NCBI GenBank assembly: GCA_030063045.1
Contig: JAQSEB010000042.1
Coordinates: 1,860,001-1,924,000, forward strand
Length of the DNA stretch: 64,000 nt
Reading direction: 5' to 3'
Origin: Pratylenchus scribneri
Lineage: Eukaryota > Nematoda > Chromadorea > Rhabditida > Pratylenchidae
The notes beneath the pieces were generated by a model that worked only from the letters and a program-made list of their open reading frames with translations, had not been told where the DNA came from and did no database searches. The position numbers and the translations under genes were made by a program. Of this stretch, positions 28,401-56,043 are shown piece after piece (positions within the stretch are counted from its first letter, which is position 1; each line of letters opens with the position of its first letter).

Positions 28401-30524
28401 CTCAATGTGGCCGCTTGCAAATCTTTTCGTCTCTTTTTTCGTACACTTTTATTCGCACTTCGATCATTTGCCAGCCGTTCGGCGGCTGCCACAATTCTCC
28501 GATTCAATTCAATTTCTACTTCCAATTGGCCAATTTCATCGCCCTAAATATAATTTTTGTTCAATCAATTTATATTTTTTATTCCCACTTCATTTTCTCT
28601 TTGTTGAATTAATTCTTGCGGGAATTTGAATGCCGTCCCAATTCTGGTTCGCACATGCGGTTCCGGTTCACCGGGCAAAAGTGTTTTATAAACTTCTTCG
28701 GGCATTTGGCCAGTTAATTCCTTCACAAAAATAATATTCAAATATTATTCCAATTAATTCCCAATTAACCCCTTCGGCAATGCACAATTTTTTCAATTCT
28801 TCAATTCTTTGGACCAATTCCTCCTCCAATTGTTCTCTTTTATCCAAAAGCATTCGGCACAATTCCTTTGATTTTTCTATTTTTTCTTCCTCTTTTTCTT
28901 CTTCGGTAGATGATTTTACTGAAAGAATTTGATGCGGTAAATTAAATTCATTGTATAAATTTTGAATGAAAATTGGGGCAAATGGGTGAATGGAGATTAA
29001 AATTAGGGCTGCCATAATACCGGGGAAACCCGGCATTTCCCGGGTTTTTGATGTCCCGGCCGGGGTTTTGCCGGGGTTTTGAAAGTGCCGGGTTTTTTGC
29101 CGGGTTTTTCATATTTTGCCGGGTTTTGCCATGTTTTTAAATTTTTAGCTAAATTTTTCGCTGCGCGGCCATTTTTGGGTCTAATTTTTCGCTGCGCGGC
29201 CATTTTTGGGTCTAATTTTTCGCTGCGCGGCCATTTTTGGGTCTAATTTTTCGCTGCGCGGCCATTTTTGGGTCTAATTTTTCGCTGCGCGGCCATCTTT
29301 GGGTCTAATTTTTCGCTGCGCGGCCATTTTTGGGTCTAATTTTTCGCTGCGCGGCCATCTTTGGGTCTAATTTTTCGCTGCGCGGCCATCTTTGGGTCTA
29401 ATTTTTCGCTGCGCGGCCATTTTTGGGTCTAATTTTTCGCTGCGCGGCCATTTTTGGGTCTAATTTTTCGCTGCGCGGCCATTTTTGGGTCTAATTTTTC
29501 GCTGCGCGGCCATTTTTGGGTCTAATTTTTCGCTGCGCGGCCATCTTTGGGTCTAATTTTTCGCTGCGCGGCCATTTTTGGGTCTAATTTTTCGCTGCGC
29601 GGCCATCTTTGGGTCTAATTTTTCGCTGCGCGGCCATTTTTGGGTCTAATTTTTCGCTGCGCGGCCATTTTTGGGTCTAATTTTTCGCTGCGCGGCCATC
29701 TTTGGGTCTAATTTTTCGCTGCGCGGCCATTTTTGGGTCTAATTTTTCGTTGCGCGGCCATCTTTGGGTCTAATTTTTCGCTGCGCGGCCATTTTTGGGT
29801 CTAATTTTTCGCTGCGCGGCCATTTTTGGGTCTAATTTTTCGCTGCGCGGCCATTTTTAGCTAATTTTTCTTCCAATCAGGGCCCATTTTTAGCTATTTT
29901 TTCTCCCTATCAGGGCTTTTTTAGCTACTTTTTCTACCTATCAGGGCCATTTTTAGCTAATTTTTTTCCTTCCTTCGCGGCTTTTTCTGGCTAAACTTTT
30001 TGACGGCAGACCGATTTTTAAAGCTTATGATATCTTTATTTCATAACGCACATGCTCAAAAAGTCAATTAAAAATATAAATCTGAAGTAGAAAATTTTTA
30101 CAAGCTTTTACTAAATTGCATTTTAACACGTTTTAAAAGATGCCGGGTTTTTACCGGGGTTTTGAAAATTTTTGCCGGAGTTTTGCCGGGTTTTTAGACC
30201 CGAATGCCGGGGTTTTGACTTTTGGAGATGGCACCCCTGATTAAAATGGATGATAAAAATTGGAAGATTTGGAATAAATGAGGAAAATATGTAAATTTAA
30301 ATTAATTTATTTCCATTTTTGTATTTTCCCTCACCAGCAGAAATATTGGCCACATTGGAAGATGACAAATTTTTGGCCAAAATGAATGAATGGCTATTCT
30401 CATCGGTGGCATCATTTTCGTGCCTTTCCATTTTCTCATCAATTTTATTTTCTTGAATAATTTTATTGGAATGTTTGAGGGAAATTGAGGCCGGCGAACG
30501 GTCGGCGACACGGGCGGCCGGCAT
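25476..30524 (-). CDS. CUPID-domain protein (FRMD4/INAVA/CCDC120-like), no FERM domain
   Basis: Starts at ATG 30524 (MPAARVADRSPAS). The second to fourth exons (about 28918-28376) encode a CUPID (cytohesin ubiquitin protein-inducing) domain: ELCRMLLDKREQLEEELVQR, IEELKKLCIAEGELTGQMP, LLPGEPEPHVRTRIGTAF and then LEVEIELNRRIVAAAERLAN with KSVRKKRRKDLQAATLRL. In vertebrates this domain binds cytohesins (ARF GEFs) at cell junctions. The rest is a long Ser/Thr-rich tail (SSSKPDVSSLADGTKS; SISSAADSASNGSDGG; RRPTPPRQRRSASRDHF; PIYYNGLLVDNQSL) ending SSTSTMV with a class I PDZ-ligand pattern. It has no FERM domain, so it resembles INAVA or CCDC120 more than FRMD4. About ten exons follow the domain. 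One intron (25922-25972) has a GC donor. Introns 1 and 4 carry hAT-type MITEs. Confidence 0.82.
27465..27605 (+). mobile_element. R1 element, left half (copy D), split
   Basis: Matches the left half of copy B: GCCAATAATGC, TTTCTTATTTATCC, TACCCACAATT, CACCCTATCAATCAAATATT, then diverges just before the hAT MITE at 27639. The right half is at 28258-28385 in the same orientation, suggesting one R1 copy later separated by insertions. Confidence 0.6.
27639..28066. mobile_element. hAT-type MITE with internal ~41-bp minisatellite
   Basis: A 428-bp element bounded by 14-bp perfect inverted repeats (CAGTGTTGTCCAAA at the left; its complement at the right) and a near-perfect 8-bp target duplication (ACCTTGAG at 27631-27638; ACCTTGGG at 28067-28074). 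TIR start CAG and 8-bp duplication are typical of hAT elements. The interior is nearly all a degenerate tandem repeat of GACGAGACGAATGACGAGG plus a GGTAAAAAAGGCCAA-type spacer. No transposase. Sits in an intron of the CUPID-domain gene. Confidence 0.8.
28258..28385 (+). mobile_element. R1 element, right half (copy F), split
   Basis: Matches the G/C-richer right module of R1 (AGGCCTAGCTGCCAAGGCCC; ATTTTAGCCCTATTTTAGGA). It lies about 190 bp beyond the hAT MITE and in the same orientation as copy D. Confidence 0.6.
29004..30239. mobile_element. hAT-type MITE, 1.24 kb, with internal 31-bp minisatellite
   Basis: Ends are 12-bp inverted repeats with two mismatches (TAGGGCTGCCAT at 29004; ATGGCACCCCTG ending 30239), a standard hAT terminus. 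An exact 8-bp target duplication ATTAAAAT flanks it at 28996-29003 and 30240-30247. Both subterminal regions are packed with CCGGGTTTTT and CCGGGGTTTTG motifs, possible transposase-binding repeats. The middle is a long 31-bp tandem array. No transposase frame, so non-autonomous. It occupies most of intron 1 of the CUPID-domain gene. Confidence 0.85.
29135..29860. repeat. 31-bp tandem array (about 23 units) inside the hAT MITE
   Basis: Highly uniform unit containing TAATTTTTCGCTGCGCGG and CCATTTTTGGGTC. Two variants, ATTTTT and ATCTTT before GGG, alternate irregularly, which suggests homogenisation by unequal exchange. Each unit contains the self-complementary core GCGCGGCC-type GC block in otherwise AT-rich DNA. 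Confidence 0.9.
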
Positions 30525-30942
30525 TCAAAAAATGGGTGGCAAAAATGTGGAGGCCAATTTTAATAAATTTATAATATTTGGATGAGCTTAATATATTAAA
30601 ATGTAAAATTATTATTTTTATAAAATTGAGGCTTGGATGACTCCAAAATAAATTTCAATTTTCGGTCGATGAATGGGAATGTGAGGAATGCGCATCCATA
30701 AAATTTTCCCATTAATATTATTAGGCAATAATAAATAAAATATTCACAAATTCGCGCATACATTCCCCCTATTCCCCTTTGTTGATCGTTGGAGTGGAAA
30801 ATTTAGCAGCAAAATTGGTTTTGGTTTGGAGCAAAACAAAAATGGAATGAAAAAGGGAATTACGGAGGATTCTTGGCAATGATTCAAATTCAATATTGCA
30901 ATATTTGGGGCTAATTATGGGATGTTTGTTTTTTCCGAGATT

Positions 30943-31460
30943 TGTATTTCATTCCGGAAAGAATTAATTTGCACTTTTTTTTTGTGTTTCATTCCGGAAA
31001 GAATTAATTTGCACTTTTTTTTTGTGTTTCATTCCGGAAAGAATTAATTTGCACTTTTTTTGTGTTTCATTCCGGAAAGAATTAATTTGCACTTTTTTTG
31101 TGTTTCATTCCGGAAATAATAAATTTGCACTTTTTATTTGTGTTTCATTCCGGAAATAATAAATTTGCACTTTTTATTTGTGTTTCATTCCGGAAATAGA
31201 ATTAATTTGCACTTTTTTGTGTTTCATTCCGGAATGAATTAATTTGCACTTTTTTTTGTGTTTCATTCCGGAATGAATTAATTTGCACTTTTTTTGTGTT
31301 TCATTCCGGAAAGAATTAATTTGCACTTTTTTGTGTTTCATTCCGGAAAGAATTAATTTGCACTTTTTTTTGTGTTTCATTCCTGAAAGAATTAATTTTC
31401 ACTTTTTTTTTGTGTTTCATTCCGGAAAGAATTAATTTGCACTTTTTCCGGAAAAATTTG
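30943..31460. repeat. 40-bp satellite, locus 1 (about 13 units)
   Basis: Unit reads GTGTTTCATTCCGGAAAGAA then TTAATTTGCACTTTTTTTT. It contains the 8-bp palindromes TTCCGGAA and AATTAATT. Length varies by the T run. It lies upstream of the CUPID-domain gene. The same unit, inverted, forms the array at 52019-52735. Confidence 0.92.
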
Positions 31461-40478: not shown

Positions 40479-41658
40479 TCAATTTGACTGGTTCAGAATT
40501 TTGGCAATTGTTGCACGGGAATATTTCACCAAATTTTCCTGGTTTCGCAATTTGCAAACGGCGGACGGGAATTTCTTCATTTTATTCACATTTTGGTATT
40601 GATTTGCAACCAAATTTGTTTCATCAATGCAAGCAACAACATTGGTGGCGGCATCTTCCTGCAAAAATGGACAAATTAATTAACATTTTAATATTTCCTG
40701 AACATTTAATTATTATTGGGGGAAATTAATAAATATTATTATTTGCACTTTTGGATTAATTGAAAATGATTTGGACTTTTAGAAATAAAAAAAAGGAAAT
40801 TAAATTTTTAGAAATTGAAATTTTTTGGTTTCTAAGAAAAAAAGCAATGCCCTTTAAAAGTTCTTACCGGTTGAATCATGATTCGCTTGAGGAAGAAGAG
40901 GAATTTTTTAATCCGTGGATTGATCCCCGCACAATCGGCCATTTGAGTGCGAACGGCGCCCGGATGGACGGCAATGGCACTGATCAATTTTTGGTCATTG
41001 TTTTGTTCATTGTTGGCCAAATATTGGGCCAAAAGGGCGGTGGCGAATTTGCTAAGGGCATAGGCTTTCCATCGTTTTGCGTCAGCGAACATTTGTTCCC
41101 ATTTGGTTGGGTCCTTCTCCACCGGGAACACGGGGCCCACCAATCGGTGCATCACCGACGTCAGACTGACCACCCTCAATGGCCTCATTTTGGCACGTTG
41201 ATGGGCAATAATTCCTTCGCAAAGTAGGAAATGGCCAAGGAAATTCACTTGGAATGTTGGTTCCAGCCCATCCACCGTTTTTGCCTCTTTTGGCAGCAAA
41301 ATCCCCGCATTCAGCACCAAAACATCAAAAACACTGTAAATTTGGCCAAAATTGTTTTGAATCATTGTTTTCCATCAACTCACATTCCATCCTCCACAAT
41401 TTTGTCCAAAAGTGCCTGCACTGAGCGAAGATTGGCCAAATCCACCGGCAACCATCCAATTTGTTGTTCATTTCCATTTTTGGCCTTTTCTCCTATTTTT
41501 CGCACTGCTCCCTCGGCCCTTTCCCTGTTTCGGCACCCAATTGTGATGTCATATTCACCTTTGCCCGCCAACAACATTGCCGTCGCCAATCCAATTCCCT
41601 GATTTCCACCCGTGATCAAAACGTGTTTATTTTTGTTGTTTGATTTGGTCATTGTCAT
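40479..41658 (-). CDS. Short-chain dehydrogenase/reductase, copy 1, 306 aa
   Basis: Three exons (41658-41384, 41333-40868, 40658-40479) in phase. Classical SDR of the retinol-dehydrogenase/WWOX-like type, a cytosolic or membrane-associated NAD(P)-dependent oxidoreductase; substrate unknown. The cofactor motif TGGNQGIG is at residues about 17-24, NAG follows LVLNAG, the catalytic serine is in LTSVMHRL and the catalytic pair in YALSK; PGAVRT follows. The start MTMTKSNNKNKH is the most proximal ATG to the Rossmann strand. Exons 1-2 and their intron are almost identical to copy 2 at 47.6 kb while exon 3 is strongly diverged. Confidence 0.9.
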
Positions 41659-46740: not shown

Positions 46741-47776
46741 TTATTTTGAATTTGGTGAAATTCTTTGATTTATCATTCGTTTGGCAATTTCCACCAAATT
46801 TTGTTGATTTCTCAATTTTCGGACCGCTGCCGGCAATTTCTTCATTTTGTTGGCATTTCGATATTGGCCCATTCCCAAATCATTTTCAATACAGAAAAAT
46901 ACATTTTCGGCTGCTGTTTCCTGGAATAAATTTAAAATTTTCAAAAATTTAATATTATTTTTTGTACCGGCTGAATCATAATTCGCTTGAGGAAGAAGAG
47001 GAATTTTTTAATCCGAGGATTGATCCCCGCACAATCGGCCATTTGAGTGCGAACGGCGCCCGGATGGACGGCAATGGCACTGATCAATTTTTGGTCCTTG
47101 TTTTGTTCATTGTTGGCCAAATATTGGGCCAAAAGGGCGGTGGCGAATTTGCTAAGGGCATAGGCTTTCCATCGTTTTGCGTCAGCGAACATTTGTTCCC
47201 ATTTGGTTGGGTCCTTCTCCACCGGGAACACGGGGCCCACCAATCGGTGCATCACCGAGGTCAGAGTGACCACCCTCAATGGCCTCATTTTGGCACGTTG
47301 ATGGGCAATAATTCCTTCGCAAAGTAGGAAATGGCCAAGGAAATTCACTTGGAATGTTGGTTCCAGCCCATCCACCGTTTTTGCCTCTTTTGGCAGCAAA
47401 ATCCCCGCATTCAGCACCAAAACATCAAAAACACTGTAAATTTGGCCAAAATTGTTTTGAATCATTGTTTTCCATCAACTCACATTCCATCCTCCACAAT
47501 TTTGTCCAAAAGTGCCTGCACTGAGCGAAGATTGGCCAAATCCACCGGCAACCATCCAATTTGTTGTTCATTTCCATTTTTGGCCTTTTCTCCTATTTTT
47601 CGCGCTGCTCCCTCGGCCCTTTCCCTGTTTCGGCACCCAATTGTGATGTCATATTCACCTTTGCCCGCCAACAACATTGCCGTCGCCAATCCAATTCCCT
47701 GATTTCCACCCGTGATCAAAACGTGTTTATTCCCATTTTCATTGTTGCTTGATTCTGCCTTCTGGCATTTAATCAT
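46741..47776 (-). CDS. Short-chain dehydrogenase/reductase, copy 2, 312 aa
   Basis: Three exons (47776-47484, 47433-46968, 46920-46741). Same catalytic features as copy 1 (TGGNQGIG, LNAG, LTSV, YALSK). In the shared part of about 245 residues I count three amino-acid differences (AVRK/AARK, SLTS/TLTS, NNDQ/NKDQ). The N-terminal residues before KHVLITGG and the whole of exon 3 (TAAENVFFCIENDLG versus DAATNVVACIDETNL) differ clearly. Both copies appear intact. Confidence 0.9.
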
Positions 47777-50815: not shown

Positions 50816-53800
50816 TTATTCTTTGGGCTCTTCTTTGTTGGCAAAGAATTCCTTCAATTCGACAATTTTCTTCTCCAATTTTTCTTTGATTTGTTCATTT
50901 TCTTGGTCTTTTTGTTTTATGCTGGCCACAACCAATTTTTGAGTTTCATTCAGTAAAAAGGCCAATTCCGGAGGAAAAGATTGAGTTGGTTGATCGCCAC
51001 CGGAAACAATTTTGGTGGAAATGAGAAAAGCAATCAAGGAGGAAACAAATTTGCCTAAAAAGTGGATTTAATTGAATATTATTCAGTTGGACCTGAAGCA
51101 TGGATGGCCAATCCATGGAAATGATGAAAGGAAAGTAGGATTGCCAACAGCAAAAAAATTGGCGGATCCGAACAATTTGCCATTTGATTTTGCAATTCAA
51201 TGCCAAAAGTGGCCAATCGATCAGCCCTAAATTTGTTTTTAATAAACCCCTTCCATTATTTGGCCCACCTTTCCTTCTTGTCCGGTTGTTTCAATATAAA
51301 TCCTGCCAAACTGGCCAATCGACCCACCGCCTCATGGAATTTCTCCATCATCGGTTCCTGCAAGGATTCGAACAATATTCTCACTCTTTTTTGCATTTCT
51401 GTCGATTCCAAAGTCCCAATCAAATTTTCCTTTTGTTTGGATGTGAGTGAGGTTGAAGATTGCGGGGATTTTGGATCGGCCAATGCCAGCAAAAGGGAAT
51501 TGGCCATTTCAGTGCCCAAGGAACGAAGTAAATAGGAAAGTAAATCATCACTTATTGATTCTGTAAAATGTATCCAAAAATAATAATAATAAATTTGATA
51601 AATTCCACCTTCCAAAGCCTCAGCCCCCTTTTGGAACATGCAAATTGCCGAATATGTCTCCCCAACTTTGATCATTTTTTCCTCATATGCCTTCCTCATT
51701 TCTTGCTGTTCTCCAGAATCCGCTGTCATTTTCTGCCATGCTTCTTTAATTCCATTTTTATACATTTTGTTGGCTTCATCCACAAAATCATCGGCCAATT
51801 CATCCAAGAGTGCAGCCGGAATTTGAAATTCCGTTGGTAATTTTCGTTGCAATTCACTGAATAATTCATCTGCAGAAATTTGAGCCGAAGAGAGTGGATC
51901 AACTCCTTGTAAATATTCTTCAGTGGTTGCTCCCTTTTGCTGCTTTTTTCCTTTAATTTTGAAAATAATTTGTATTTGATTCTCCAAAATTGTGTTTGAT
52001 TTGTAATTTAATGAAAATGAAACACAAATAAAAAGTGCAAATTAATTCTTTCCGGAATGAAACACAAATAAAAAGTGCAAATTAATTCTTTCCGGAATGA
52101 AACACAAATAAAAAATGCAAATTAATTCTTTCCGGAATGAAACACAAATAAAAAGTGCAAATTAATTCTTTCCGGAATGAAACACAAATAAAAAGTGCAA
52201 ATTAATTCTTTCCGGAATGAAACACAAATAAAAAATGCAAATTAATTCTTTCCGGAATGAAACACAAATAAAAAGTGCAAATTAATTCTTTCCGGAATGA
52301 AACACAAATAAAAAGTGCAAATTAATTCTTTCCGGAATGAAACACAAATAAAAAGTGCAAATTAATTCTTTCCGGAATGAAACACAAATAAAAAGTGCAA
52401 ATTAATTCTTTCCCGAATGAAACACAAATAAAAAGTGCAAATTAATTCTTTCCGGAATGAAACACAAATAAAAAGTGCAAATTAATTCTTTCCGGAATGA
52501 GACACAAATAAAAAGTGCAAATTAATTCTTTCTGGAATGAGACACAAATAAAAAGTGCAAATTAATTCTTTCCGGAATGAAACACAAATAAAAAGTGCAA
52601 ATTAATTCTTTCTGGAATGAAACACAAACAAAAAGTGCAAATTAATTCTTTCCGGAATGAATTACAAATAAAAAAGTGCAAATTAATTATTTCCGGAATG
52701 TAACACAAATCTTTCCGGAATTACCGGAATGAGAGACATATAACTTTCTGGAATACAGTGCTCATTCCCTCATAATCATAACTTAAAAAGTATTACAAAA
52801 CTATTTCTTACCCATTTGTTGGCTCCCTCCTCCTCCTTTCTTTCCGCCTCCTTTTCCACCCTTCTTTCCGGGTTTGTCAAATTCCCATGATTCTTCCTTC
52901 TGTTGTTGTTCCTTTATCCCCGCCTTTTGTCCCTTTTGTTGTTGTTTTGCCATCATTACCATATTCAAATGCTCTTTTCGCAATTCAGGTGCATCTTTTT
53001 CTGCCTTTTCCATCGCAAATCCTTCAATTCCTTTCAACCATCCTTGCATCAATTCCGGATGCTCGAAAACAACCGAACGATCCTCGGTTGCACTAAAAAC
53101 ATATTAAAAATGGTGGAAATGTTTCGGACCGTAAATTTGTTCCATTGCAAAATTGTTGAAGGCGTTCCACAACACGGCTATAATCTTCGTCCAAAAGGAA
53201 GGTAAATTGAGAGGGGAGAATGTCCTCAAGGAGGCAAAAATGATTGGATTGAAGCAAATTTTTGGCCAATGAGTCGCACTCTCGCCAAAGTTTTGATTCG
53301 GAAAGGACAACGGAAGGCCAGAAAAGCAAATCCTGAAAATCTTTTGCAGGAAGAAGGTCACGGAAAAATGCACTCGGTTCAGTGGGAATGGAAAGTTTTT
53401 TGAGGATGGAACATTCTAAAAAGGAATAAATTAATATTATAACTTAATTGATTAATTCACCAATAAAATGATGTTCCGCAATTTGTTGTTTTGCAAATTG
53501 TTTTGCCAATTTTTCATGAATATTTGGCACATACAAAGATTTTAGGGAATTTTTTGTGCCAATCAATTTGCCGGGTAATTTGCCTAGATTTTTGGGAATA
53601 AGGATTATGGAAAAGGAATATGGCAACCATTTTCAGCCAATCCATTCCAAAGTTTGAAGAAGAATGATTGGCTAATTGCCAAATGTGAGTGAATATCGGC
53701 CAATGGAATTGGTTTGGTCAATGCAATTAGCAATGCTCTCAATTTATTTTCCAGCGAGGAAATATAGCGAATTGTGCAAAGTTGGTCTTCGAAATGGATG

Positions 53801-56043
53801 GCCGAAATGCGAGTGCCAATTTGAGGCAAAATGTGGAAATTGAGTAATTCAGTTGGAAGCTAATGAGAAAGAAATTAAAGGGCATAAATTCAAGTTTTAT
53901 TCACCTCCCATTGTCGAGTTAATTGTAACATTGAAAGATGACCCAATTCTTGGAGACGGGCATCCAATCGAGCAAAAAGATCATCGATATATTCACTATA
54001 AAATAATTCAATTAATTTACATCCAAATACAAGTACTTATTGGTTATCCCTTGGTGGATTTAAAACACTACTAATAAGGATTGCTCCTATATCAATCGTC
54101 TTATGTTGATTCTACTAATAGGGCCTTAAAATAATATTGTTGGGATCGTAGGATACCATATTCCTCACTTTTTGCCCAAATATCAATCATGCCTCCCTCT
54201 ATCAATCATATTTTGCCTCAGGCCTCTTTTTAAACCAGTTTATTTCCCCATAATATGTTCACTTTTCGTCGACATAATGTTTTTTTTTCCATTTTTGTAC
54301 TAATCAGATAAATATTTATTAAAGTCCAGCCCGATTAATCCCGTTCATTGGGCCACCTGTGGGTTTAGGTCCCCGGTGAAGGCCCGGTGCAAGAGCCAAT
54401 GCCCAGATCGACCCAAACAACTTTAGCTCTAGATTAGGGCTAATAGCACCTAGGGGTGTCTTTGGGGGTGTTCAAAATCGCCCGGGTATAACCGATAAGT
54501 ATCCAAAATTCATCCAGCAATTCTCACCGATGGATCAATTCGCCGGCACAAACAACGAATTCTGCTGCACCGTGATCGCCTTCCTGATCCACCTCTCCCT
54601 CCCCAATTTCTTCCCCTCCTCTTTGATTTTGTTGTTTTGCCAATATTTGGCCCACCGCCGTATTCACATGGTCCAAATCAACATTCAATTGGGTGGCCAA
54701 TTCCGTGAGGGCAATTCGCCCTCCGGCGGCCAAACATTCATTGGCACATTCCGTTTGTAAATATTTTCGTGTGATATATTCCTTCAATGGGAAATGCCGT
54801 AAAAATAATTCTATTTTTAATTACTTTTCCATCGGCGCTGATCACCAAATCGATTAAACCCCTGGCCATCAAAATGCTAACCAATTCAACGCAATTCGAA
54901 TCAGTCAATCTATTTTTGTTTAAATTTAATTAATTTTTTATATTTTTATTTTTTTTTATAATTATTTTTAAAATTAATTTTCTTTATTTTTTAATCTTTT
55001 TTAAATTAATTTTTTTTATATTTTTTTAATAATATTTTTTTTATATTTTTTTTATTATTTTTTTTTATTTTTTAAATTAATTTTTTTATATTTTTTTAAT
55101 ATTTTTTTTATTTTTTTAATATTTTTTTTATATTTTTTTATTATTTTTTTTTATTTTTTAAATTAATTTTTTTATATTTTTTAAATATTTTTTTTATATT
55201 TTTTTAATATTTTTTTTTATTTTTTTTTTATATTTTTTTAATATTTTTTTATTATTTTTTTATATTTTAAAATTAATTTTCTTCATTTTAAATTATTTTT
55301 TAAATTAATTTTTTTAAATATTTTTTTTTATTTTTTAATTATTTTCTTAATTTTTTTATATTAATTTTTTAATATTTTTTATAATTTTTTATTATTTTTT
55401 AATTAATTTTTTTTATTTTTTAATTATTTTTTAAAATTAATTTTTTAATATTTTTTTTATTTTTTTAAATTAATTTTTTTAAATATTTTTTTTATTTTTT
55501 AATTATTTTCTTTATTTTTTTTTATTAATTTTTTTTTTATATTTTTTTATTATTTTTTAATTAATTTTTTTTATATTTTTTTTAAAAATTTTTTTTATTA
55601 TTTTTTAAATTATTTTTTAAATTATTTTTTAAATTATTTTTTAAATTATTTTTTAAATTATTTTTAAAATTATTTTCTTTATTATTTTCTTTATTATTTT
55701 CTTTATTTTTTTAATTAATTTTTTATATATTTTTATATTTTTTAATTATTTTTTTTTAAATTAATTTCCTTTATTTTTTAATCATTTTTTTAAAAATAAA
55801 TTTTTTATATTTTTTATTATTTTTTTTACTTTTTTATATTTTTTAAAATTAATTTTGTATATTTCTTTTCTAATTATTTTTTTAAAAATAATTTTTTAAA
55901 TAAATTTTTAAAATCATTTTTAATTAATTTTTATTTTATTGTTTCTATTTCATATTTTCGCACCGTTTTGCACTTTCGGTCAGCTGAACTCTTTGCAAAT
56001 CGGAGGCCAACCGTTGAATATCGGCCCAAGTTGTTGCCGACAT
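50816..56043 (-). CDS. UFL1: E3 UFM1-protein ligase 1
   Basis: UFL1 transfers the ubiquitin-like UFM1 to substrates, notably ribosomes at the ER. Start ATG 56043 (MSATTWADIQRLASDLQRVQ). Exon 2 (54909-54825) gives LTDSNCVELVSILMARGLID and exon 3 EYITRKYLQTECANE, GGRIALTELATQLNVDLDHV, both closely matching the UFL1 N-terminal winged-helix region. Later exons give EYIDDLFARLDARLQELG, RTISAIHFED-like and ENKLRALLIALTKPI, SLYVPNIHEKLA, a divergent middle, a Lys/Gly-rich disordered segment (KKGGKGGGKKGGGG), and the C-terminal helical half (about 51957-50816; LPTEFQIPAALLDELADDF, SYLLRSLGTEMANSLLLALA, IFLLLAILLSFHHFHG, FVSSLIAFLIS) ending NKEEPKE. About 12 exons. Three introns are expanded by a T-tract, an R1 element and a 40-bp satellite. 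Confidence 0.9.
52019..52735. repeat. 40-bp satellite, locus 2 (about 18 units), in a UFL1 intron
   Basis: Very regular unit AACACAAATAAAAAGTGCAA then ATTAATTCTTTCCGGAATGA. Most units are identical or differ at one base; the last units decay. It is the reverse complement of the unit at 30943-31460. It fills the intron between the Gly/Lys-rich exon (donor GG|GTAAGAAA) and the C-terminal half of UFL1. Confidence 0.95.
54085..54470 (+). mobile_element. Dispersed short element, family R1, copy E
   Basis: In the UFL1 intron between exons 3 and 4. Carries CTATCAATCATATTTTGCC, AAATATTTATTAAAGTCCAG, CATTGGGCCACCTGTGGG and TTTAGCTCTAGATTAGGGCT in the order of copy B. Non-coding. Confidence 0.65.
54925..55945. 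repeat. About 1 kb of nearly pure A/T, T-dominated, in UFL1 intron 1
   Basis: Composed of TTTTTTTTA, TTTTTAATATTTTTTT and TTTTAAATTAATTTT blocks with only a handful of G or C. T predominates on the plus strand, hence A on the sense strand of UFL1. It separates exon 1 (ends 55964) from exon 2 (starts 54909), so it makes up nearly the whole intron. Confidence 0.9.

What the first reader, a model, noticed from the sequence alone, without database searches (positions are those of the whole stretch)
29004..30239. hAT-type MITE that carries its own 31-bp minisatellite
Exact 8-bp target duplication (ATTAAAAT), 12-bp TIRs of the CAGGGGTGCC type and CCGGGGTTTTG subterminal motifs define the element's edges. 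Inside is an array of about 23 units of 31 bp. A MITE that contains an expanded satellite could seed tandem arrays at new sites whenever it moves, a route for satellite spread.
Basis: partly seen in the sequence, partly recalled or inferred. Interest (0 to 1): 0.75.

Follow-up and report, generated by a model that had tools for sequence, protein, structure and literature searches.

The report
Jumping DNA carrying a stretchy repeat
The window holds one of about a hundred nearly identical, recently moved, gene-less jumping elements that carry a tandem repeat whose length differs between most copies, and the same repeat unit also sits inside other families of jumping elements in the same genome.

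Summary
Observation confirmed. Window 29004-30239 is a non-autonomous hAT-type element with an exact 8-bp target duplication and 23 units of 31 bp. Three diverged homoeologous loci are uninterrupted with a single ATTAAAAT. The genome holds 109 exact left ends of this type, 29 of a sister type and 133 right ends. All 57 + 20 sequences with both exact ends have perfect 8-bp duplications. Three 3.0-kb relatives share the ends, encode a hAT transposase C-terminus and lack the array. The MITEs are very young, yet 527 of 562 pairs identical outside the array differ in unit number (2-27). One insertion on two contigs has 11 versus 5 units within 2,400 identical flanking bases: length can change after insertion. 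Unforeseen: the unit also lies inside other hAT-like MITE families, two of which align to this one only in and beside the unit. None of 10 other unit loci read is a free satellite; the longest arrays found are about 1 kb. The array travels inside MITEs; seeding of stand-alone satellites is not supported so far.

The parts
28996..29003 (.). left 8-bp target site duplication ATTAAAAT
   Evidence: single copy in three homoeologous empty sites L109, L110, L111
29004..29015 (+). left TIR TAGGGCTGCCAT (C in place of the first T in the other 99 of 100 listed left ends)
29004..29146 (+). left end shared with the 3.0-kb transposase-bearing elements (98.6% over 143 bp between MITE L063 and L048), with CCGGGG/CCGGGTTTT subterminal motifs
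29152..29870 (+). 31-bp minisatellite, 23 units; not found in the four transposase-related elements examined
29849..29970 (+). degenerate edge: diverged 31-33 bp repeats related to the array unit
   Evidence: (TRF), reading
30050..30239 (+). approximate right end related to the 3' end of the 3.0-kb elements (85% over about 190 bp between MITE L063 and L048), with GCCGGGGTTTTG motifs
30228..30239 (-). right TIR CAGGGGTGCCAT (reverse strand)
30240..30247 (.). right 8-bp target site duplication ATTAAAAT

Best explanation
A young, non-autonomous hAT element (MITE) mobilised in trans by 3.0-kb hAT elements with the same ends. It consists of the left and right ends of such an element around an internal cassette of 31-bp repeats. 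Shown: element boundaries, 8-bp duplication, empty sites, many near-identical copies, transposase-bearing relatives with the same ends, an array length that varies far faster than the rest, and one change after insertion. Inferred: mobilisation by that transposase; array change by replication slippage, unequal exchange or gap repair after excision; each jump copying whatever array length the donor has. The unit is shared with other hAT-like MITE families, so the cassette predates this family or has passed between families.
For: Exact ends 109, 29 and 133 times, with 0 matches of the reversed control patterns. 57 of 57 and 20 of 20 perfect 8-bp duplications, 76 of 77 different. Seven of seven homoeologous sites found, for three of four insertions searched, are unoccupied. 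L048, L078 and L087 (3,016-3,022 bp) have the same ends and perfect duplications; the last coding stretch of L048 matches Dimer_Tnp_hAT at 24.6 bits (cut-off 21.4), and four places in the genome match it at 99-100%. 37 of 52 type-1 MITEs have no substitution from consensus over about 469 sites, while unit number runs 2-27; 527 of 562 pairs identical outside the array differ in unit number. L098 and L101 share target duplication and 2,400 of 2,400 flanking bases but have 11 and 5 units, explained by one block of six units.
Against: The MITE right end is only 85% identical to that of L048, the left end 98.6%, so L048 is not the direct parent of both ends. Only one of four coding stretches of L048 matched a transposase family, and Hermes matches it only weakly (E 0.11). 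One of the four best genome matches holds a stop codon. No transposition was observed. Array lengths come from one assembly; collapse or expansion errors cannot be excluded. The post-insertion change rests on one pair, which could also be one locus assembled twice.
Confidence: 0.88

Rival explanations
1. The unit was captured repeatedly: tandem arrays moved between otherwise unrelated MITE families by recombination or by template switching during gap repair, so this is a mobile cassette within mobile elements.
For: Representatives of families B and E align to family A only in and beside the unit region (BLAST at E 1e-4), with 27-28 bp exact between A1 and each. Family E has another TIR (TAGGGTTGCGCCCC).
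Against: The array has the same orientation and starts about 150 bp from the left end in the representatives of A1, A2, B and C, and the A1 and B left ends agree over CAGGGCTGCCA. Both fit common descent with fast-changing subterminal motifs better, at least for A-D.
Confidence: 0.35
2. The array changes mainly during transposition (abortive gap repair at the donor or target) rather than at rest.
For: Copies identical outside the array usually differ in length (527 of 562 pairs).
Against: L098/L101 are one insertion on two contigs with 11 and 5 units and no flanking change.
Confidence: 0.3
3. Unit number variation is largely an assembly artefact.
For: Tandem arrays are a known weak point of assemblies (general knowledge); L098 and L101 could be redundant haplotigs.
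Against: Arrays of about 60-840 bp are short for long reads (the read type of this assembly is not known here). Variant units are ordered differently in different copies, as expected of real arrays.
Confidence: 0.1
4. A composite of chance terminal motifs around an ordinary minisatellite.
For: Only a single copy was seen in the window.
Against: Many copies, 77 of 77 perfect duplications, empty sites.
Confidence: 0.01

Closest known systems
miDNA4, a Tc1/mariner MITE containing a satellite monomer in Xenopus tropicalis (Scalvenzi and Pollet 2014; seen only as described in passages of PMC9659126)
   Same: A MITE with a tandem repeat inside that expands; MITE bursts spread the array.
   Different: Listed there as Tc1/mariner; here hAT with 8-bp duplications, and the unit is shared by several MITE families with different termini.
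Xmix MITE / Xstir tandem repeats in Xenopus (Hikosaka and Kawahara 2004; seen only in passages of PMC9659126)
   Different: The review's table places the Xstir source in the TIR; here the array is internal and starts about 150 bp from the left end.
DINE/Helitron central tandem repeats in Drosophila (passages of PMC9659126)
   Same: Non-autonomous DNA element with an internal array.
   Different: Rolling-circle element without target duplication; satellite arrays are reported for it, whereas no stand-alone array was found in the limited sample here.
Hermes, a structurally solved hAT transposase
   Same: The C-terminal stretch of L048 aligns to Hermes residues of about 441-505, weakly (E 0.11).
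   Different: Too distant for family assignment.

Membership tests
hAT superfamily non-autonomous element (MITE) | 8-bp target site duplication | tested here: met
   57 of 57 type-1 sequences with both exact ends (window and four transposase-related ones included) and 20 of 20 type-2
hAT superfamily non-autonomous element (MITE) | short TIRs beginning CAGGG-like (label recalled) | tested here: met
   TAGGGCTGCCAT / CAGGGGTGCCAT, 10 of 12
hAT superfamily non-autonomous element (MITE) | related element with the same ends encoding a hAT transposase | tested here: met
   L048, L078, L087; Dimer_Tnp_hAT over its curated cut-off in the last of four coding stretches of L048; the other three matched no transposase family
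hAT superfamily non-autonomous element (MITE) | empty site with one copy of the target | tested here: met
   window: 3 of 3 homoeologs found have a single ATTAAAAT
hAT superfamily non-autonomous element (MITE) | cross-mobilisation by that transposase | not testable with these tools
   needs a transposition assay
MITE-driven satellite (miDNA4-like) | tandem array inside the MITE with length variation among copies | tested here: met
   2-27 units in 52 type-1 MITEs
MITE-driven satellite (miDNA4-like) | stand-alone satellite arrays derived from the element | tested here: inconclusive
   10 of 10 further fetched C1 unit loci are in MITE sequence, 9 of 28 C1 clusters were not read; longest arrays found about 1 kb, 40 of 498 candidates scored

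The most novel reading that the evidence does not exclude
The 31-bp unit is a conserved, selected cis-acting module of MITEs (for example a transposition enhancer or a site for a host factor) that is kept while termini and subterminal motifs turn over; its tandem amplification tunes activity, so that several hAT-MITE families share one repeat core while the transposase-bearing relatives lack it.
Probability: 0.18. Interest if true: 0.75.

Novelty: new variant of a known kind. Interest (0 to 1): 0.5.

Why it matters
It is a clean natural system for asking how tandem repeats spread and change: about a hundred near-identical insertions with exact boundaries, arrays of 2-27 units, empty homoeologous sites and candidate autonomous partners in one genome. 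That one repeat core recurs in MITE families with different termini raises a testable question: descent, exchange or function? The two sister types on non-overlapping contig sets also make the family a possible marker of subgenome history.

Tried and rejected
Link to telomeres: the G-rich CCGGGGTTTT motif suggested root-knot nematode telomere repeats. A text search found neither CCGGG nor GGGGTTTT in PMC10844300, and the only CGGG in the text of PMC10630426 is a 19-bp centromere box unlike the motif. The sequences of those telomere repeats were not compared directly, and the species of the window is not identified here. A folding explanation of the unit: the unit, a dimer and the left end fold no better than shuffles (z -0.30, -0.48, -0.12). 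Rfam found nothing in the window. ARAGORN's tRNA-Pyl is taken as a false positive in a eukaryote (judgement). The protein search with the last coding stretch of L048 gave 8 proteins of 149 candidates, without organism names, so it did not help to place the family. Prior descriptions: six paper searches listed no title or abstract start describing a hAT MITE with a 31-bp array; only passages of PMC9659126, PMC10844300 and PMC10630426 were read, so this is not a claim of absence from print.

Full report
Check of the observation. The sequence shows ATTAAAAT on both sides of 29004-30239, TIRs TAGGGCTGCCAT and CAGGGGTGCCAT, CCGGGG-type subterminal motifs and a 31-bp array at 29152-29870 with 23.3 units at 97% matches. 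A scan of the whole window for CAGGG-like ends with an exact 8-bp duplication at most 6 kb apart gave this element only. The window is part of contig C42 of a 227-Mb genome in 276 contigs.

Copies. Exact end patterns occur 109 times (left, this type), 29 times (left, sister type, in which the 14 bp CCGGGGAAACCCGG are replaced by their reverse complement CCGGGTTTCCCCGG) and 133 times (right), with 0 matches of the reversed control patterns. The 109 include transposase-bearing relatives: 6 of the 60 fetched left-end loci (L048, L078, L085-L088). Of these 60 loci (L029-L088), 56 have an exact right end and a perfect 8-bp duplication (57 with the window), two more have an inexact right end and a perfect duplication (L049, L074), and two (L085, L086) match only the left 1.6 kb of the 3.0-kb element and have no right end in the stretch fetched. 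All 20 fetched sister-type loci have perfect duplications. Over these 77 the duplications are 76 different words; only L098 and L101 share one. So the two ends do not occur independently.

Empty sites. The joined flanks of four insertions were searched (37 matches). For three of the four, uninterrupted loci were found and fetched: three for the window (85-87% identity), three for L046 (89-91%), one for L048 (93%). All seven are unoccupied. The three window homoeologs each hold one ATTAAAAT; the L048 one holds one ACTTGGGC; at L046 the target itself has diverged in two of the three. For L087 no full-length empty site was found.

Transposase-bearing relatives. L048, L078 and L087 (3,016, 3,022 and 3,020 bp) have the same ends and perfect duplications, are 99.3-99.4% identical pairwise, and contain several coding stretches. 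The last one of L048 (176 aa) matches Dimer_Tnp_hAT at 24.6 bits against a cut-off of 21.4; three further stretches matched no transposase family. Four places match the last stretch at 99-100%, one of them with a stop codon, and four more at 90-91%. L088 is a 1,690-bp internal deletion of such an element. None of L048, L078, L087 and L088 carries the 31-bp unit. MITE L063 matches L048 at 98.6% over the left 143 bp and at 85% over the right 190 bp; the region between, which holds the array, has no counterpart apart from a 25-bp stretch.

Array dynamics. In 52 type-1 MITEs (59 type-1 sequences less four transposase-related ones, two longer than 1.5 kb and L051) unit number runs from 2 to 27 with 16 distinct values; mean pairwise substitution outside the array is 0.19%, and 37 of 52 show no substitution from consensus over about 469 sites. 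527 of 562 pairs identical outside the array differ in unit number. In 20 type-2 copies the range is 3-13, and 32 of 39 such pairs differ. In type 1 most arrays end in the same last unit while inner units vary in order. L098 (C23) and L101 (C59) share duplication and flanks (2,000 of 2,000 upstream and 400 of 400 downstream bases compared) but have 11 and 5 units; the shorter unit string follows from the longer by removing six consecutive units. This is one case, and redundant assembly of one locus is not excluded.

The unit in other families. The 21-bp unit core occurs 2,662 times. The 100 listed places form 28 clusters on C1: 9 in type-1 elements, 10 others that I fetched, 9 not fetched. All 10 fetched lie in hAT-like MITE sequence of other families: B (L116, L117, L118, L120, L123; GCCCCCTTTT motifs), C (L119), D (L122), E (L121, L126, L127; TIR TAGGGTTGCGCCCC; L126 and L127 match L121 at 98% and 100%). 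The seven with both ends in view have perfect 8-bp duplications; L119, L126 and L127 were cut by the fetched stretch, so theirs is untested. Representatives of B (L120, L123) and E (L121) align to family A (L063, L092) only in and beside the unit region, with 27-28 bp exact against L063; C and D are diverged relatives of A. The array starts about 150 bp from the left end in the representatives of A1, A2, B and C, at 161 in D and at 284 in E. Two explanations remain: common descent with fast change of subterminal motifs, or exchange of the cassette. Two of the nine unread clusters (3925616 and 4451610) lie about 180 bp from an exact family-B left end in the same orientation.

Stand-alone satellites. 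The 40 of 498 array candidates that were scored reach at most about 1 kb; two of the longest that I fetched (L124 on C42, 31 units; L125 on C23, 27 units) also start with a family-A left end, though their right ends were not in the fetched stretch. Hence there is no evidence of arrays that left their element, within this limited sample.

Distribution. The 100 listed of 109 type-1 left ends lie on 33 contigs, the 29 type-2 ones on 16 others; none is shared, whereas shuffled labels give 16 shared on average and never fewer than 7 in 20,000. Nine type-1 places are unlisted and were not tested. Of 49 family-B left ends 32 lie on type-1 contigs, 0 on type-2 contigs, 17 elsewhere. Against a strict split, of 17 other A-like left ends 2 lie on type-1 and 6 on type-2 contigs. 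With the diverged homoeologs this suggests subgenomes with separate recent transposition histories (inference).

Judgement. Membership in the hAT superfamily is well supported; cross-mobilisation is inferred. MITEs with internal tandem repeats are known (PMC9659126, passages read). New here, as far as my six paper searches and the passages read show, are the hypervariable 31-bp array in a young hAT MITE family and the same unit inside MITE families with different termini.

Noticed in passing
window 30941-31447 and 52016-52710: Two arrays of one 40-bp unit (TTTGTGTTTCATTCCGGAAAGAATTAATTTGCAC...) in opposite orientation, 13 and 17 copies, without hAT-like ends in the scan.
   Followed up: no
window 40832-41374 and 46941-47474: Two near-identical short-chain dehydrogenase coding stretches on the same strand, probably a local duplication.
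   Followed up: no
left ends of type 1 versus type 2 copies: A 14-bp subterminal palindrome-like stretch is the exact reverse complement of itself between the two sister types, as if a small hairpin had flipped.
   Followed up: partly
L032 (C1:1912861-1915707): A MITE copy with about 1.2 kb of extra sequence that begins TAGGGTTAATTACCCG and ends in its near-inverse, apparently a different nested element.
   Followed up: partly
L085 and L086 (C60): Two loci matching the left 1.6 kb of the 3.0-kb hAT element up to the same breakpoint, without its right end in the stretch fetched.
   Followed up: partly
window 54925-55944: About 1 kb of AT-rich degenerate tandem repeat.
   Followed up: no
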